36,562 bases of DNA from an uncultured Eubacteriales bacterium (GTDB taxonomy: Bacteria; Bacillota; Clostridia; Peptostreptococcales; Anaerovoracaceae), in the NCBI GenBank assembly GCA_902763505.1, contig CACWSO010000022.1, positions 1 to 36,562 of the forward strand. Direction: 5' to 3'. Made by a program: the position numbers and the translations under genes. Below the pieces are notes generated by a model that had not been told where the DNA came from, ran no database searches, and worked only from the letters and a program-made list of their open reading frames with translations. Of this stretch, positions 3,424 through 19,905 are shown in pieces. The stretch's first letter is position 1. Every line of letters starts with the position of its first letter.

Positions 3424-5226
3424 TTACTTGTCCTCCTTTCCTGCGCCGCGCGCTGTGCTTTCAATGGCATCAAACGGACATACTCTCGTGCAAAGTCCGC
3501 ATCCAACGCAGCTTTCCCGGATGATATATGGTCTGCCGTCTTTCATCGCGATGGCCGGACATCCGACCTTCATGCACTGGCGGCAGTTCTTGCATTTGTC
3601 TGTGATGACATTCGGAACACCCGGCTGCTTCACGATCATCGCGCAAGGTCTCTTGGTGATGATGACGGACAGCTCGTCGCGCTCCGTTTCTTCCTTAATG
3701 AGCTGCTCCAGTTCCTTGACGTCAAACGGATCGATTTCGAATACGTTTCTAACTCCAATTGCTCTGCATAGCGTATAGATATCGAGAGCCGGGGCCGGTT
3801 CGCCCTTAGCGTTCTTTCCGGAAGCCGGATTCTGCTGATGGCCGGTCATACCAGTAATGCGGTTGTCCAGAATGATGACCGTGCCCTTCGCTTCGTTGTA
3901 TACCATGTTGACCAACCCTGTGATACCAGAGTGAATGAAAGTGGAATCACCCAGTACCGCAACCAGGTTCTTGCTGCTGCCGGTTGCCTTTTCAAATCCA
4001 TGTTCCATGCCGATGGAAGCGCCCATGCACATGGTCGTATCGATAGCGTTGGTCGGCGCCAGTGCAGCCAGAGTGTAGCAGCCGATATCGCCCATGACGG
4101 TTGTCTTCAGCTTGCTGAGCACATAGAAGAGCCCCTTATGCGGACATCCCGCGCAAAGAAGCGGAGGTCTTCCCGGTGCGTCTGTGCTGTCTGTTTCTCC
4201 TTCCGGCAGTTCGATGCCAAAAGCCTTGCGGATCATGTTGGCGCTGTACTCGCCCTGGATCGTGAACAGTTCCTTGCCGCCGTGCACCGGAATGCCTGCT
4301 GCGCGGATCTGCTCCTCGAGGAATGGATTGCCCTCTTCGATAACATAGAGCTTATTGACCTTCTTCGCAAAAGCAGCGATGTCCTGCAGCGGCAGCGGGT
4401 TGACTAGCCCCAGTTTGAAGACGCTGGCATTCGGCAACGCTTCCTTCACGTACTGGTAGCAGATGCCGCTGGTCACGATACCAATTTCCGGATCGTTCAG
4501 TTCTTCCTTATTCAGCGGATAGCCTTCGACTGCTGCGGTGATGTCATCTGAGCCGAGCGGCACACCGACTGCGATGTTGTGAGCGTCTTCTACAATCTGC
4601 GCCAGACGCTGCTCCTGCTTCACGTGGTTGACGCGGGCCATGGCCGGCATCGCCACGTACTTGCGGAAGTTTTTCTCATATGGAATCACGTCGTGCTCTA
4701 CACGCTCGTCTTCCTCGACAATTCCCCTTGAATGGGAGATTCTCGTATTGGAACGCATCAGTACGACTGTGTCGTATTTCTCACTCATGTCGAATGCAAG
4801 TTTCATGTAGTCTTTGCATTCAGTCGGATCGGCCGGCTCCAGTATCGGAACGCCTGCGCCTCTTCCGTGATATCTTGAATCCTGTTCGTTCTGGCTGGAG
4901 TGACATCCATTGTCATCCGCCACCAACACGACCAGTCCGCCGGTCACGCCGTTGTACGCCGCCGTAAAAAACGGATCTGCAGCCACATTCAGTCCCACGT
5001 GCTTCATGCAGGAAAGCGCCCGCGCACCGCCGATTGATGCGCCCACTGCGACCTCAACGCCGACCTTCTCGTTCGGCGCCCACTCTACGTGCACCTCATC
5101 GCCGCACTTGGCCAGCGTTTCTGTGACCTCCGTGCTTGGGGTACCCGGATAGGAGCTTACCACCTTGACGCCGGCTTCCCATGCGCCTCTGGCAAACGCC
5201 TCATTGCCTAACATAATTCGTTTCAT
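3424..5226 (-). CDS. iorA: Indolepyruvate:ferredoxin oxidoreductase, alpha subunit
   Basis: Large thiamine diphosphate subunit of 600 residues. In order: the N-terminal pyrimidine-binding domain (GNEAFARGAWEAGV, SSYPGTPSTEV), the transketolase C-like domain, the TPP-binding domain (CPHKGLFYVL, MGDIGCYTL, GDSTFIHSG, ILDNRITGMTG), and a C-terminal ferredoxin domain with two 4Fe-4S motifs, CKNCRQCMKVGC and CVGCGLCTRVCP. The second motif has the normal spacing; the first has an extra residue before its last Cys, as is common in IorA. It has a strong AGGAGG site, and an intercistronic hairpin lies just upstream. It acts in the cytoplasm in amino acid fermentation. Confidence 0.97.
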   Translation of the reverse strand: MKRIMLGNEAFARGAWEAGVKVVSSYPGTPSTEVTETLAKCGDEVHVEWAPNEKVGVEVAVGASIGGARALSCMKHVGLNVAADPFFTAAYNGVTGGLVVLVADDNGCHSSQNEQDSRYHGRGAGVPILEPADPTECKDYMKLAFDMSEKYDTVVLMRSNTRISHSRGIVEEDERVEHDVIPYEKNFRKYVAMPAMARVNHVKQEQRLAQIVEDAHNIAVGVPLGSDDITAAVEGYPLNKEELNDPEIGIVTSGICYQYVKEALPNASVFKLGLVNPLPLQDIAAFAKKVNKLYVIEEGNPFLEEQIRAAGIPVHGGKELFTIQGEYSANMIRKAFGIELPEGETDSTDAPGRPPLLCAGCPHKGLFYVLSKLKTTVMGDIGCYTLAALAPTNAIDTTMCMGASIGMEHGFEKATGSSKNLVAVLGDSTFIHSGITGLVNMVYNEAKGTVIILDNRITGMTGHQQNPASGKNAKGEPAPALDIYTLCRAIGVRNVFEIDPFDVKELEQLIKEETERDELSVIITKRPCAMIVKQPGVPNVITDKCKNCRQCMKVGCPAIAMKDGRPYIIRESCVGCGLCTRVCPFDAIESTARGAGKEDK

Positions 5227-15109: not shown

Positions 15110-16312
15110 TCACCCGTTTCTGCTGTACACGATTTCTCCATTCATAACCGTCATCATGCATCTGCCCTGCACTGTCCATCCGTCGAAAGGCGTGCTCCTG
15201 CCTTTGCTCTGGAACTGGTTTGGGTCGATTCTGTAACGGCTGTCCAAATCCCAGACCGTGAAGGTCGGTTCCGGATCTTCCTCGTTCGGCATGTTGCTTT
15301 TGATCTTAAATCTGTTGTTTGGGCGGTCTGTCAGAAGCTCAATCAGTTGTGCCATAGTTAGGACGCCCTCTTTCACCAGCTTCGTGTATAGCACTGGGAA
15401 GGCGGTTTCCAACCCGACGATGCCGTACGCGCTGCCTTGGAAGCCTTTGTTCTTCTCTTCCTTGCTGTGTGGCGCGTGATCTGTCGCTATCATATCAATC
15501 GTTCCGTCTGTCAACGCCTCTAAAAGCGCTTCTCGATCTGCACCTGTCTTGATCGGCGGATTCATCTTGAAGCGACCGTCATCCGCCAGCTCATCATCCG
15601 CCAGCACCAGATAGTGGGGCGCCGTCTCGCAGGTCACATCCATGCCTGTTGCCTTTGCAACTCGGATGAGCTCCAGTGATTCCCGCGTCGAGGCGTGGCA
15701 CATATGATATGGACATCCGGTCAGTGCTGCGAGCTCCAGGTCTCTGTCCAGCTGCCTGTACTCGGCTTCTCTGCTCTCCCTCGGAAATCTTGTATCCTCG
15801 CAGTGCGCCACGACGATGCTGCCGGCGGCCTTCACCCGCTCCATAGCTTCCTTCATAAGCCCGTCGTCCATGACGCCGACACCGTCATCCGAAAACCCTG
15901 CAACATGCGGCGCCAGTCCTTCAATATCCGAGAGTTCTTTTCCCTTCTCGCCGCGGGTCAAAGACCCCAGCGGGTGCACACCGATGCAGGCATCCCTCTC
16001 GATGATCTCCGTCTGAGCCCTCAAATGTTCCAGGTCGTCCGGAACCGGATCCAGATTCGGCATCGTCAGCACGTGGGTGAATCCCCCCGCTGCTGCCGCG
16101 AGACTTCCCGTCCGAATTGTCTCCTTATAAGAAAAACCCGGCTCTCTCAAATGAACATGTACATCTGAGAAACCGGGTAAAATATAATAACCGTCAATAT
16201 TTTCAATGTTTGTATCGGGAAAAGCAAGTCGCGCACCTTCGGAAGACACCGCCTCCCGTATGGTGCCACGCACCTCCGCAATTGTCATTCCTGTTTTGAA
16301 TTTCTCCCTCAT
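15110..16312 (-). CDS. pyrC: Dihydroorotase
   Basis: Zinc amidohydrolase that closes carbamoyl aspartate to dihydroorotate. The metal-binding HVHLREPG motif is at 52-59, MPNLDPVPDD is the second family signature, and MIATDHAPHSKEEK carries the catalytic Asp. At 400 residues it is a little short for the class I (B. subtilis type) enzyme, with a reduced N-terminal strand region. It is the first gene of the pyr cluster and has a strong AGGAGG site 7 bases before the ATG. Confidence 0.95.
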   Translation of the reverse strand: MREKFKTGMTIAEVRGTIREAVSSEGARLAFPDTNIENIDGYYILPGFSDVHVHLREPGFSYKETIRTGSLAAAAGGFTHVLTMPNLDPVPDDLEHLRAQTEIIERDACIGVHPLGSLTRGEKGKELSDIEGLAPHVAGFSDDGVGVMDDGLMKEAMERVKAAGSIVVAHCEDTRFPRESREAEYRQLDRDLELAALTGCPYHMCHASTRESLELIRVAKATGMDVTCETAPHYLVLADDELADDGRFKMNPPIKTGADREALLEALTDGTIDMIATDHAPHSKEEKNKGFQGSAYGIVGLETAFPVLYTKLVKEGVLTMAQLIELLTDRPNNRFKIKSNMPNEEDPEPTFTVWDLDSRYRIDPNQFQSKGRSTPFDGWTVQGRCMMTVMNGEIVYSRNG

Positions 16313-16344
16313 TCAAACCTCCTGCTGATTTCTTTTCCTCGCAG

Positions 16345-16373
16345 TTTATACCATACCGCAGGGGCTGTGTCAA
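16345..16373 (-). promoter_or_regulatory. Consensus sigma-A promoter of the pyr cluster
   Basis: TTGACA (16368-16373), a 17-base spacer and TATAAA (16345-16350) on the minus strand. The predicted start point near 16338 leaves a leader of only about 26 bases, with no room for a PyrR-type attenuator. Confidence 0.85.
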
Positions 16374-16437
16374 TGACTTTTTACGCGTTGTCCGTTGCTT
16401 TTTTCGTGCAGTGTTTTGATATGTCTTCTTTCCCCTT

Positions 16438-17118
16438 TCAGGTGATATATCCAAGTCCTTTCATACTCACATAATCCCCGTCTCCAATGATGATGTGATC
16501 AATCACCGGAATGCCCAGCAGTTTCCCGACTTCCACCAGCCGTTTCGTCGAATCGATGTCTTCCTGAGAGGGGCTCGGATCGCCGCTCGGGTGGTTATGT
16601 ATAAAAGCAACAGAGCCTGCGCTTCTTCTCACAGCCGGACTGAATACTTCCCGCGGATGACTCACCGACGAGTTGATGTCGCCGACAGATACTTCGTGTT
16701 CCTCCAGGATTTCTCCCCGCGAATTGATCAGCAGACACTTGAAATGCTCCTTCTTCTCATACCGCAGCCGCTCCAGAAAAAGCTGCGCGATGTCCTCCGG
16801 GCATTTGATCCTGACCCGCTCCTCCGGCGGCAGACACATGAGCCGTTTTCCCAGTTCCAGCGCCGCCAGCAGCATGCAGGTTTTCGCGACGCCCATGCCT
16901 GAGACCCGTTTCAGCTCCTCCGGGCTGCACTCCGCCAGATACCGCAGTCCTCGCTTATCCATGGCCAGCAGTTCCCCAGCCAGATCCACCACCGACTTCT
17001 TCCTCGTTCCTGTACCGAGGAGGACCGCCAGCACCTCCACCGTCGACAGACTCTCCGGCCCGTCCCGCAAAAGCTTCTCCCGCGGCTTCTCACTTTCCGG
17101 CAATTTGCTGAGTTTCAT
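16438..17118 (-). CDS. radC: RadC-family JAMM-domain protein
   Basis: A 226-residue RadC/YsxA protein. It has an N-terminal helix-hairpin-helix region (about 60-90, VSGMGVAKTCML) and a C-terminal JAB/JAMM metalloprotease-like domain with HNHPSGDPSPSQED (from residue 174). The true role of the family is unsettled; the old DNA-repair link was not upheld. A strong AAAGGAGGG site precedes the ATG. The array of half-sites at 17244-17484 lies upstream of its likely promoter, so radC is the nearest candidate for control by it. Confidence 0.92.
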   Translation of the reverse strand: MKLSKLPESEKPREKLLRDGPESLSTVEVLAVLLGTGTRKKSVVDLAGELLAMDKRGLRYLAECSPEELKRVSGMGVAKTCMLLAALELGKRLMCLPPEERVRIKCPEDIAQLFLERLRYEKKEHFKCLLINSRGEILEEHEVSVGDINSSVSHPREVFSPAVRRSAGSVAFIHNHPSGDPSPSQEDIDSTKRLVEVGKLLGIPVIDHIIIGDGDYVSMKGLGYIT

Positions 17119-17189
17119 CTCAATCCCTCCTTTTCAAAAGCATTGCAAAATCAGTCGTTCTTGTGTTTGCCCCAATTTTATGTGTTAAT

Positions 17190-17217
17190 ATTTTACATCA
17201 TATCCATTAAATAGCAA
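17190..17217 (-). promoter_or_regulatory. Possible radC promoter
   Basis: TTGCTA (17212-17217), a 16-base spacer and TAAAAT (17190-17195) on the minus strand. The match is moderate. The half-site array begins 27 bases upstream of the -35. Confidence 0.45.
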
Positions 17218-17243
17218 TCCATTTTTTTACTTTTCCTTTTGCG

Positions 17244-17484
17244 TTATACATAATAGACAATAAAATTATCCTCTTGTATAGTCTTTGCCTTTGCCGTTAT
17301 ACAAAAGCAACCTATTCGACTGCGATATGTATAACCGTTAGGGGAAGTATTATACATAGTTCTGGATTTCCAAGCTGCTATGTATAGCTGAAGTTATACC
17401 TTTTCTTGTTTTTCTTCCATGTTATGTATAACCGCAGGCGCTGAAGCTATACATTCCCAGCTCAATTGAGCAATCTATGTATAA
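17244..17484. repeat. Array of ten YTATACATA half-sites with fixed 29/24-bp spacing
   Basis: Nine-base words of consensus YTATACATA alternate in orientation. Plus-oriented copies start at 17244, 17297, 17350, 17394 and 17447; reverse-oriented copies start at 17273, 17326, 17379, 17423 and 17476. Start-to-start distances are exactly 29, 24, 29, 24, 29, 15, 29, 24, 29. This makes five inverted pairs, each with a 20-base centre, at a 53-bp period with one 9-base shortening. The 20-base centres are unrelated to each other, while the half-sites and spacing are kept, as expected for protein-binding sites rather than a fresh tandem duplication. It is not coding. The function is unknown. Confidence 0.85.
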
Positions 17485-17495
17485 TAAAACAATAC

Positions 17496-17527
17496 AAAAA
17501 CGGCACGAGGTGCATTCCCCATGCCGT
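17496..17527 (-). terminator. Intrinsic terminator of the PFOR/ilvB/ilvN operon
   Basis: ACGGCATGGGG pairs with CCTCGTGCCGT around a 6-base loop (11 positions, two wobble pairs) on the minus strand, followed by TTTTTG. It lies 53 bases past the ilvN stop. Confidence 0.88.
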
Positions 17528-17580
17528 TGCTCTATTTGTTGCTCTTTTCCCTTTCGATGCGCACCAACGCACCGCGCGCC

Positions 17581-18126
17581 TTATCGATCCTGCATGCTGA
17601 TGGACTCGATGGCGACCGGGCCGCCGCGGACGACCTCGATGTTCTTGAAGCGCTCGTTGATGGCGCGCAGAATGGAGTCGTTCTTGGCCTCCGTACGGGT
17701 TGCCTCAATGAGGACGCTCTTCTTATCCATGTCCTTAATCTGGAAGCGGAAAGCCTCTCCCATCTGGAAAATCTCCGCGCGGTCTTTCTCGCTGACGTTG
17801 AAAATCTTGATGAACATAACTTCCTTGCTTCGAATAGCTCTGTCTGTGTAATCGATTACTTTGATGACTTCGACCATGCGGTTGAGCTGCTTCTTGATCT
17901 GCTCGTGGGTATTGTCATCCGCGTCCACGCAGACTGTCATACGGGAAATGTTCGTGTCTTCTGTTTCACCAACCGTCAGAGAATGGATGTTGTAGGCTTT
18001 GCCTGAGAAGGATCCGGAGATTCTCGCAAGTACGCCGACCCTGTTCTCTACGTAGAGGGAGATCCAGCGTCTTCTCATGCTGCCGTTGCCGCTGTTGCCG
18101 CTGCCGCTTGCTATGTTATTGCTCAT
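17581..18126 (-). CDS. ilvN: Acetolactate synthase regulatory (small) subunit, first copy
   Basis: ACT-domain subunit that activates the catalytic subunit and gives valine feedback. The ACT domain follows MRRRWISLYVENRVGVLARISGSF, and the C-terminal half carries the usual activation domain. At 181 residues it includes an odd Ser/Gly/Asn-rich N-terminal tail of 16 residues (NNIASGSGNSGNGS) before the family's normal start. AGGAGG lies just before the upstream ATG and nothing suitable precedes the internal Met, so the tail should be translated. It follows ilvB by 15 bases. The second small subunit in this window (27031-27537) has no such tail. Confidence 0.93.
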   Translation of the reverse strand: MSNNIASGSGNSGNGSMRRRWISLYVENRVGVLARISGSFSGKAYNIHSLTVGETEDTNISRMTVCVDADDNTHEQIKKQLNRMVEVIKVIDYTDRAIRSKEVMFIKIFNVSEKDRAEIFQMGEAFRFQIKDMDKKSVLIEATRTEAKNDSILRAINERFKNIEVVRGGPVAIESISMQDR

Positions 18127-18141
18127 TTCGTACCTCCTCCC

Positions 18142-19905
18142 CTACATTTCCGTGATCAGATCCGTGATCGCGCCGTTCGGTTCGATCATCGGCATGACCA
18201 GATCTTTGTCTTCGATAATAAATTCGATCAGGGTCGGGCCCTTCTTATTCTGACGGGCTTCCTCCAGCGCCGGTTCGATCTCATCGGCGTCGAAGACACG
18301 CAAGCCTTTCGCGCCGTAGGCCTCAGCCAGGGCAACGAAGTCCGGAACGTAAGGCGGACAAGTCTTGTCGCGGCCGTGGCATTCTTTGCAGAGGTTCCTG
18401 CGCTTTCTCAGGCAGGTTCCCGCATATACGCCGCCGGCGAAGAGCTCCTGCCACTGGCGCACCATGCCAAGATAGCCGTTGTTCAGAACGCAGATGGTAA
18501 TCGGCAGTTCGTTGACGACTGCGGTCGCCAGTTCCTGAGAGTTCATCTGGAATCCTCCGTCGCCAGCGACGGTGACAACTTCCATATCAGGGTTTCCCAA
18601 AGCTGCGCCGATAGCGGACGGCAGACCGTAACCCATGGTTCCTAAGCCCCCGGACGTGATCAGCTGTCTCTTGCCATACACTTCAAAGAACTGGGAGGTC
18701 CACATCTGGTGCTGACCGACATCGGTCGTGACGATCGGTTCCTTGAAGACTTTGTTGATGCCGTCGATGATCTGCTTCGCGCGAAGCTTTTCGCCGCTTA
18801 GGCAGTCCGGCATATCCTCGCCGAATTCCTGGGTGAGCGGTTTCTCTGCACGCCACTTTTCCAAGCGTTTGATCCAGGCCTCACGTCTGCAGCTGTCGCC
18901 TTCCTCCAGTTGTTTCAGCAAAGCACGGATGGCTTTGCCTGCGTCACCTACGATTGGAACATCTACGTTGACGTTCTTTGAAATCGATGCGGTGTCGATG
19001 TCGATATGTATGATCTGTGCGGACGGAGCAAAGGTGCCCAGTCTGCCTGTGATTCTGTCATTGAATCTTGTTCCGATGGAAATGAGCATATCGCAGTGGT
19101 TGACTGCATTGTTCGCCGCCCAGTTTCCGTGCATACCCACGTTGCCGTAGTAGAGCTCGTGGTTGGTCGGAATGCTTCCGCGTCCCATTACGGTTGTGAC
19201 TGCCGGAATCTGTGATGCTTCCACCAGCTTCGTCATGTCGCTCTGTGCATGGGAGATCTTGACTCCGCCGCCCAGGATGAACAGCGGCTTCTTCGCCTTC
19301 TGAATCATACCTGCCGCGCGCTTGATCTGTCCCGCATGAACCGTTGTCGGAGGTTTGTATCCGCGCAGGTTGACTTTGTCCGGATAGATGTCGCTGCCCA
19401 GAGTATCCATAACATCCTTCGGCAGATCCAAAAGCACCGGCCCCGGTCTGCCTGTGGACGCAATGTAGAACGCCTCTTTGATCATCTTGTTCAACTCACC
19501 CCTGTTGTGGACCATCGCGGAATACTTGCAGATGTTCTTCGTCACACCAACAATATCGACCTCCTGGAAACTGTCGTTTCCAATGAGTTCAAACGGTACC
19601 TGACCTGTCAGGCACACCAAAGGCACGCTGTCCAGATTCGCGTCTGCGATACCGGTGACCAGATTGGTCGCGCCCGGGCCGCTGGTAGCGATGCATACGC
19701 CCACCTTGCCGGTGGATCTCGCATACCCTTCCGCTGCGTGCACCAGAGCAAGCTCCTGGCGAGGCAGAATCAGTTCCACCTCATCCTGCTTGTAGAGCTC
19801 GTCAAAAATGCCGACTACTGTTGCGCCGGGATATGCGAATACTTTTTCGACGCCCTCCGCCTGAAGGGCTCTGATGAGAAGTTCATTTCCCGAAATCTTA
19901 GCCAT
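18142..19905 (-). CDS. ilvB: Acetolactate synthase catalytic (large) subunit, first copy, with Cys-rich loop
   Basis: Thiamine diphosphate enzyme that condenses two pyruvates (or pyruvate plus 2-ketobutyrate) in valine, leucine and isoleucine synthesis. Seen: catalytic Glu51 ([14 protein letters not shown]), the FAD/beta domain, and the ThDP-Mg site GDGGFQMN...LNNG (448-476). Just after VRQWQELF, in the mobile lid region over the active site, is a 20-odd residue insertion with Cys498, Cys506, Cys509 and Cys516 plus His510. The second copy in this window (25356-27020) lacks it. This could be a metal or redox site. It sits 30 bases after the pyruvate:ferredoxin oxidoreductase gene, with AAGGAACAGG before the ATG. 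Confidence 0.95.

What the first reader, a model, noticed from the sequence alone, without database searches (positions are those of the whole stretch)
17244..17484. Geometrically exact array of ten alternating half-sites upstream of radC
Ten copies of YTATACATA alternate in orientation with start distances 29, 24, 29, 24, 29, 15, 29, 24, 29. The period is 53 bp (about five helical turns) with one 9-bp loss. The bases between the sites are not conserved, so geometry and not sequence is being kept. That points to a protein that binds inverted half-sites in register, such as a cooperative regulator, a partition or centromere-like protein, or a chromosome organiser. It fits no array type I can name.
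Basis: seen in the sequence. Interest (0 to 1): 0.78.

Follow-up and report, generated by a model that had tools for sequence, protein, structure and literature searches.

The report
Phased half-site arrays between genes
A bacterium carries, at several unrelated places between genes, small DNA arrays of five or six paired sites spaced about five helix turns apart on DNA predicted to be bent, which look like docking platforms for a still unknown protein.

Summary
The array is real: ten half-sites with the YTATAC core form five 38-bp units (YTATRC-N26-GYATAR) with linkers of 15, 15, 6 and 15 bp. It is not a radC feature: six of six relatives with radC-ilvN synteny lack it. The geometry recurs at four other loci of this genome, six loci of a ~90% identical relative (RGIG2549) and one of a third congener. 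The 11 arrays with both ends seen have 5 or 6 units. Neighbouring genes are unrelated.

Units differ widely outside the half-sites, yet the inner gap is 26 in 51 of 60 units and 25 in 9, and the linker 15 in 45 of 48. Arms pair no better within a unit than between units of one array, so these are half-sites rather than hairpins. A/T-tracts are phased with the helix, half a turn from the half-sites, in 11 of 12 arrays; the exception is the window array. A few solo sites occur in other genera.

Best reading: curved-DNA docking arrays for an unidentified protein, working like BIMEs but failing the REP tests.

The parts
17244..17484 (.). array of five 38-bp units (ten alternating half-sites), period 53 bp with one shortened linker
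17244..17281 (.). unit 1: half-sites 17244-17252 (+) and 17273-17281 (-)
17297..17334 (.). unit 2: half-sites 17297-17305 (+) and 17326-17334 (-)
17350..17387 (.). unit 3: half-sites 17350-17358 (+) and 17379-17387 (-)
17388..17393 (.). short linker, 6 bp instead of 15 (the 9-bp loss)
17394..17431 (.). unit 4: half-sites 17394-17402 (+) and 17423-17431 (-)
17447..17484 (.). unit 5: half-sites 17447-17455 (+) and 17476-17484 (-)
16438..17118 (-). radC (RadC/JAB domain), downstream neighbour; association judged incidental
   Evidence: Pfam RadC E 2.7e-42; array absent in 6 of 6 relatives with radC-ilvN synteny
17581..18126 (-). ilvN (acetolactate synthase small subunit), upstream neighbour; its 3' end faces the array
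   Evidence: Pfam ALS_ss_C and ACT_AHAS_ss
17491..17536 (-). inverted repeat between ilvN and the array, probably the ilvN terminator (inference)
   Evidence: I4; an 88% copy of 40 bases at G000:C19:16125-16164

Best explanation
The window array is one of a dispersed set of extragenic docking arrays. Each is 5 or 6 copies of a 38-bp bipartite site: two inverted half-sites (A)CTATRC...GYATAG(T), 32 bp between their centres (about three turns), repeated every 53 bp (about five turns), so that the half-sites lie on one face of the helix. In most arrays A/T-tracts lie half a turn away from the half-sites, so the DNA should be intrinsically curved. Shown by computation: geometry, recurrence, half-site rather than hairpin behaviour, tract phasing, presence or absence as blocks between close relatives. 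Inferred: that an unidentified oligomeric DNA-binding protein binds the array cooperatively, and that the arrays act as topological or nucleoid-architectural sites, working like the BIMEs of enterobacteria, and not as operators of the adjacent genes.
For: Same geometry at five own loci, six loci of G061 (= G065, RGIG2549) and one of G013. Half-site identity 0.84 between arrays against 0.35 at other inner positions, C22 set aside. Arms of a unit pair no better with each other than with arms of other units of the same array (374 against 379 expected; 0.91 of permutations at least as high), and chimeric units fold as well as real ones once C22 and G013 are set aside (z -0.2 and -0.1). A/T-tracts phased at 10.5 bp in 11 of 12 arrays (0 of 300 shuffles each), offset 4.7-5.7 bp from the half-sites in 12 of 12. 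Orientation relative to the gene in front is the same in three and opposite in three of six arrays judged by eye (orientations as set). Neighbour genes unrelated.
Against: No binding protein was identified and there are no binding data. The window array has weak tract phasing (p 0.16) and one linker out of register, was not recovered by the profile built from its sister arrays, and matches them at only 0.74 of half-site positions and 0.21-0.37 elsewhere. Arrays were first located with fixed-geometry patterns, so arrays of another geometry could be missed. Tandem repetition at 53 bp by itself helps keep tracts in phase. Whole arrays fold better than shuffles on both strands, the stem pair counts leaned to pairing, and the chimera test over all 60 units gave z -2.7 and -2.9, so a structural role is not excluded. 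Arrays come and go between relatives, as a selfish repeat would.
Confidence: 0.5

Rival explanations
1. The arrays are a selfish or neutral non-autonomous repeat: a small extragenic element spread by an unknown enzyme and amplified locally in tandem, its geometry set by that enzyme and without host function.
For: Presence differs between ~90% identical relatives: the window and C6 arrays are absent at the matching G061 loci, and no own array was found to match those of G061 at C83:113k and C77:4k and 31k (own counterpart loci not read). Units are locally homogenised (C30 with a 106-bp repeat; G013 identities 0.89-1.0). Solo sites exist in other genera.
Against: Unit number is 5 or 6 in the 11 arrays with both ends seen. 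Geometry is kept while sequence diverges. Arrays persist at shared loci: C8 with C83:11k on both flanks, C9 with C83:157k on one flank only, C30/C32 with G013.
Confidence: 0.27
2. Centromere-like or partition sites of a chromosome or former plasmid: repeated inverted half-sites read by a ParB-like or ribbon-helix-helix protein.
For: Layout resembles sopC (twelve 43-bp repeats each with an inverted repeat; passage in PMC9178275). A viral contig (L157) has ACTATAC half-sites just before a ParA-type ATPase gene, but I estimate that about one such pattern hit is expected by chance.
Against: No parA or parB recognised among 21 neighbouring proteins scanned, 7 of them without any Pfam match. Arrays are dispersed and gained or lost one by one. 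The C9 array has no match in the phage or plasmid collections; the two-unit pattern has none in viral contigs.
Confidence: 0.1
3. RNA-level element: tandem hairpins in 3' untranslated regions acting as terminators or mRNA stabilisers.
For: At five of nine loci the array starts within 60 bp behind a stop codon (C6, C8, C30, G061 L057 and L058) and at a sixth about 30 bp behind a tRNA (C9). Folding energies beat shuffles on both strands.
Against: No unit-level pairing preference, mixed orientation relative to transcription, linker length also kept, no Rfam match in window 16000-18300 (the other arrays were not run).
Confidence: 0.08
4. A local operator of radC or ilvN bound by a cooperative regulator.
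For: Position between ilvN and radC.
Against: Absent in 6 of 6 relatives with that synteny; sister arrays lie beside unrelated genes.
Confidence: 0.03

Closest known systems
Bacterial interspersed mosaic elements (BIMEs) made of REP palindromes
   Same: Extragenic, dispersed, short clusters of elements in alternating orientation at regular spacing, lineage-specific, and entered by insertion sequences. Passages of PMC2817692 describe regularly spaced REPs in alternating orientation and binding of gyrase and IHF; passages of PMC1525189 list IS256 among IS families that target REPs.
   Different: Units are not REP palindromes kept by complementary changes; the kept parts are independent half-sites plus phased A/T-tracts. 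Array genome G013 has no Y1 transposase match. Unit number 5-6, period 53 bp.
Plasmid centromere arrays such as F sopC
   Same: Tandem direct repeats with inverted repeats inside (43 bp in sopC, passage in PMC9178275; 53 bp here).
   Different: Several dispersed copies, no partition gene recognised beside the arrays scanned, half-sites 32 bp apart rather than one compact palindrome.
Iteron arrays and multi-site transposon ends (recalled, not searched)
   Same: Helically phased protein-binding repeats.
   Different: Iterons are recalled as direct repeats beside a rep gene; here orientation alternates and no rep gene was recognised among the neighbours scanned. Insertion sequences do abut the C6 and C30/C32 arrays, but as later insertions into them.
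CRISPR arrays
   Same: Regular tandem layout.
   Different: No conserved repeat alternating with unique spacers: in diverged arrays only half-sites and tracts are kept, in young arrays (G013) the whole unit is alike. cas genes were not searched for.

Membership tests
REP / BIME | regularly spaced elements in alternating orientation, extragenic | tested here: met
   alternating half-sites at fixed spacing; arrays lie between genes in the ORF lists read
REP / BIME | each element an imperfect palindrome kept by complementary changes | tested here: not met
   no unit-level pairing preference; leaned slightly the other way before arrays were taken into account
REP / BIME | REP-associated tyrosine transposase (Y1_Tnp) in the genome | tested here: not met
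   no match in array genome G013 (94% complete); own genome one copy with a stop inside, G065 matches to parts of the family only
REP / BIME | binding of gyrase, IHF or Pol I | not testable with these tools
   needs binding assays
Plasmid-type centromere (parS/sopC) | adjacent parA/parB operon | tested here: not met
   21 neighbouring proteins scanned, none ParA or ParB, 7 without a Pfam match
Plasmid-type centromere (parS/sopC) | tandem helically phased inverted-repeat sites | tested here: met
CRISPR array | near-identical direct repeats separated by unique spacers | tested here: not met
   within-array identity of non-half-site, non-tract positions 0.31-0.89, no repeat/spacer split
CRISPR array | cas genes | not tested
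   no search was run
Rfam-known structured RNA | match to a described RNA family | tested here: not met
   0 matches with E up to 1 in window 16000-18300; other arrays not run
Minisatellite / VNTR | variable copy number with near-identical units | tested here: inconclusive
   5 or 6 units in 11 arrays with both ends seen and inner identity at most 0.59 in 9 of 12 speak against it; copy number within one species was not tested

The most novel reading that the evidence does not exclude
A new class of chromosomal architectural site. In one bacterial family a bipartite 38-bp site read by a lineage-specific nucleoid protein occurs singly, and in one clade it has been amplified into curved, helically phased platforms of fixed size (five or six units, ten or twelve half-sites) between genes, on which the protein would wrap DNA into a defined nucleoprotein particle.
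Probability: 0.25. Interest if true: 0.82.

Novelty: new variant of a known kind. Interest (0 to 1): 0.6.

Why it matters
The best known bacterial extragenic repeats are hairpins moved by a transposase. Here the kept thing is a helical geometry: half-sites on one face, bending tracts on the other, in blocks of nearly fixed size. If a protein wraps on these arrays, they would give a countable, sequence-defined system for asking how bacteria build architectural sites, since similar sites occur singly in other genera and as arrays only in this clade as far as searched.

Tried and rejected
radC operator: rejected, array absent in 6 of 6 relatives with radC-ilvN synteny. Hairpin/RNA element: pair counts and the first chimera test (z -2.7 and -2.9) leaned towards pairing; the within-array permutation and the chimera test without C22 and G013 did not. 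CRISPR, Rfam, RAYT: see the membership test. Phage or plasmid origin: no match for the C9 array or the two-unit pattern; five viral pattern hits were read and judged chance, L157 kept as a curiosity. Solo sites: the exact pattern over 247 family genomes gave 8 sites in own and 8 in G463, but 4 elsewhere against 16 for the reversed control (counted), so outside those two genomes it shows no excess; the g33 and g23 solos come from the profile search, where 8 of the 12 single hits look like chance. Rhizobium hit L059 judged chance; Emergencia L060 (two units) left open. Replication orientation: arrays on C83 and C77 are mixed relative to GC skew. A self-similarity scan without any motif over C83, C77, C8:1-52000 and the window found the four C83, two C77 and one C8 arrays and two other repeats (periods 33 and 30, not examined); it did not detect the window array. 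Four literature searches aimed at the arrays listed nothing relevant; one search listed 8 of 70 papers, none opened.

Paper use: passages of PMC2817692, PMC1525189 and PMC9178275; outline and abstract of PMC3940949; all others only as search listings.

Full report
What is there. The window array (17244-17484) consists of five 38-bp units, each an inverted pair of half-sites YTATRC-N26-GYATAR, joined by linkers of 15, 15, 6 and 15 bp. A single-half-site scan exceeds chance (18 against 4.4 +/- 2.1). A two-unit pattern with this geometry, up to 2 mismatches, is found at 12 places in the own genome (reversed control 0) and in 0 of 60 other genomes, 36 of them congeners (reversed control 1 there).

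It is not about radC. Five congeners with radC-ilvN synteny (G020, G007, G035, G004, G014) have a short intergenic region without half-site chains. G061, 90% identical over ilvN-ilvB, lacks the array there too. In G021 the contig ends about 200 bases past the shared radC-upstream motif, with no site in between. So the array is a block present in this genome and absent in 6 of 6 syntenic relatives.

It is one of several. The own genome has arrays at C6, C8, C9 and C30/C32 besides C22, the window contig, and a decayed-looking two-unit relative at C7. The exact two-unit pattern in genome contigs (84,980 species by the tool's description; the window's own records may be left out) gave seven stretches: five from one goat jejunum MAG (RGIG2549, reached here as G061 and again as G065, taken as one because contigs and places agree), one Emergencia MAG with two units, one Rhizobium MAG judged chance. 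G061 has six arrays: C83 at 11, 57, 113 and 157 kb, C77 at 4.4 and 31.7 kb. The C8 array matches C83:11k within 48 kb of synteny at 91% identity. The C9 array matches C83:157k on one flank only, since tRNA genes follow the own array and none were found in L062. A profile of 45 units from nine arrays, run over 49 genomes of the genus with the stricter filters used above 40 genomes, matched 7; multi-unit arrays were in G000, G065 and G013 only. The hits in G003, G005, G020 and G033 were read and are not arrays. That profile was built without the window array and did not recover it at E up to 1, so the window array is the family's outlier, tied to it by geometry and half-site core. A second profile including it matched 14 of 393 genomes of the order, with multi-unit arrays only in G000 and G013 (G065 is not among its matches).

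Same locus, changed letters. G013 has five units between the polC and ispG genes, with half-sites ACTGTGC...GCACAGT; a sixth hit behind a run of N repeats the last unit and its flank and is taken as an assembly duplicate. The own genome has its array between the same two genes (Pfam GcpE and DNA polymerase III alpha), split by an insertion sequence: C32 and C30 begin at what look like the two ends of the element, an 8-bp duplication AAAAAACT flanks it, and rejoining the flanks gives a linker of exactly 15 bp and six units. ispG was found in 43 of 49 genomes and 30 loci were looked at: G000 and G013 show the repeat; in 25 others the next open frame begins within about 50 bases, in two (G014, G027) later but without a repeat, and one (G016) is cut by its contig end. 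So unit sequences were replaced while period and size stayed.

Geometry against sequence. Of 11 arrays with both ends seen, counting C30/C32 as one, 8 have 5 units and 3 have 6; the C6 array is cut by an insertion sequence. Between arrays, C22 set aside, identity is 0.84 at half-sites, 0.70 at tract positions and 0.35 at other inner positions; C22 against the others gives 0.74, 0.37 and 0.21; inside C22 0.92, 0.36 and 0.32.

Half-sites, not hairpins. Whole arrays fold better than shuffles on both strands, as inverted repeats would. But within an array an arm pairs no better with its own partner than with arms of other units (374 Watson-Crick pairs against 379 expected; 0.91 of 2000 permutations at least as high), and with C22 and G013 set aside chimeric units fold as well as real ones (z -0.2 and -0.1). 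With all 60 units that test gave z -2.7 and -2.9, and simple pair counts leaned to pairing. Across arrays arms do match (0 of 2000 permutations): some arrays have their own half-site form in both orientations, as expected if one protein reads both arms.

Phasing. Half-sites lie on one helical face: vector strength at 10.5 bp per turn is 0.90-0.99 in 11 arrays and 0.67 in the window array (0.89 there at 10.6). A/T-tracts are phased in 11 of 12 arrays (0 of 300 shuffles each) and in all 12 their mean phase is 4.7-5.7 bp, half a turn, from the half-sites; in the window array the phasing itself is not significant (p 0.16). Tandem repetition contributes, but tract positions are conserved between diverged units. 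Phased A-tracts have been associated with intrinsic curvature (abstract of PMC3940949).

Surroundings. At six of nine distinct loci the array begins within 60 bp behind a stop codon or tRNA end (C6, C8, C30, C9 and G061 L057, L058); the window array is 96 bp behind ilvN. Of 21 neighbouring proteins scanned, 14 matched Pfam (among them RadC, AHAS subunits, amidohydrolases, DUF819, PNPOx, GAF, MatE, LysO, GcpE, PolC) and 7 did not; they suggest no common regulon.

Relatives outside the genus. Solo sites of the same build (38-39 bp) occur in other genera of the family: eight exact sites in G463 (ACTATGC...GCATAGT) and seven in three g33 genomes and one g23 genome. Eight of ten solos viewed in G463, G333 and G368 share a flanking TCCT word (by eye). 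By eye the window's YTATACAT resembles these more than its sister arrays do. Outside own and G463 the exact pattern is not in excess over its reversed control (4 against 16 in 245 genomes), so the solo claim rests on few genomes.

Insertion sequences. Nine copies of one IS end occur in the own assembly; two abut array units (C6, C32). A similar end lies about 100 bp from three of six G463 sites viewed. The IS256 label is recalled from the look of the ends, not tested. REPs are known IS targets, IS256-family elements included (passages of PMC1525189).

Comparison. The arrays work most like BIMEs: extragenic, alternating, regularly spaced, lineage-specific, possibly binding a topological or architectural protein (passages of PMC2817692). 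They fail two defining tests: no palindrome kept by complementary changes and no Y1 transposase match in array genome G013. Partition sites share the tandem layout (sopC), but no par gene was recognised beside the arrays scanned. I therefore call it a new variant of a known kind and leave the protein open.

Noticed in passing
G000:C6, C8, C14, C17, C23, C25, C31, C32 contig ends: Nine identical 95-97 bp ends of an insertion sequence (IS256-like by recall); two abut array units, and contig C8 begins with one about 190 bp from where G061 has an array.
   Followed up: partly
L157 (IMGVR_UViG_3300026484_000486), 3536-3595: Viral contig with ACTATAC/GTATAGT half-sites directly before a ParA-type ATPase gene; perhaps a partition operator, probably unrelated.
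   Followed up: partly
window 17491-17536 and G000:C19:16125-16164: Similar terminator-like inverted repeat at two unrelated loci of the genome (88% over 40 bases).
   Followed up: no
G000:C7:31252-31343: Two-unit, decayed-looking relative of the array between genes.
   Followed up: partly
L079 (G061:C32) 190-229: A single unit with ACTGTGC...GCACAGT arms upstream of a UPF0004/radical-SAM protein gene.
   Followed up: partly
L102, L107 and L111 (G003): A different dispersed repeat with GCATAA and CTATGC words at three loci of one congener.
   Followed up: no
window 16596-16604: An exact TTATACATA lies inside radC; by my reading it falls in the codons of the HNHP motif and is likely chance.
   Followed up: no
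G000:C23:14715-15073: The only Y1 (IS200-type) transposase match of the own genome, in two pieces with a stop inside.
   Followed up: no
G061:C83:69716 and 216035: Two further short tandem repeats with periods 33 and 30, not examined.
   Followed up: no
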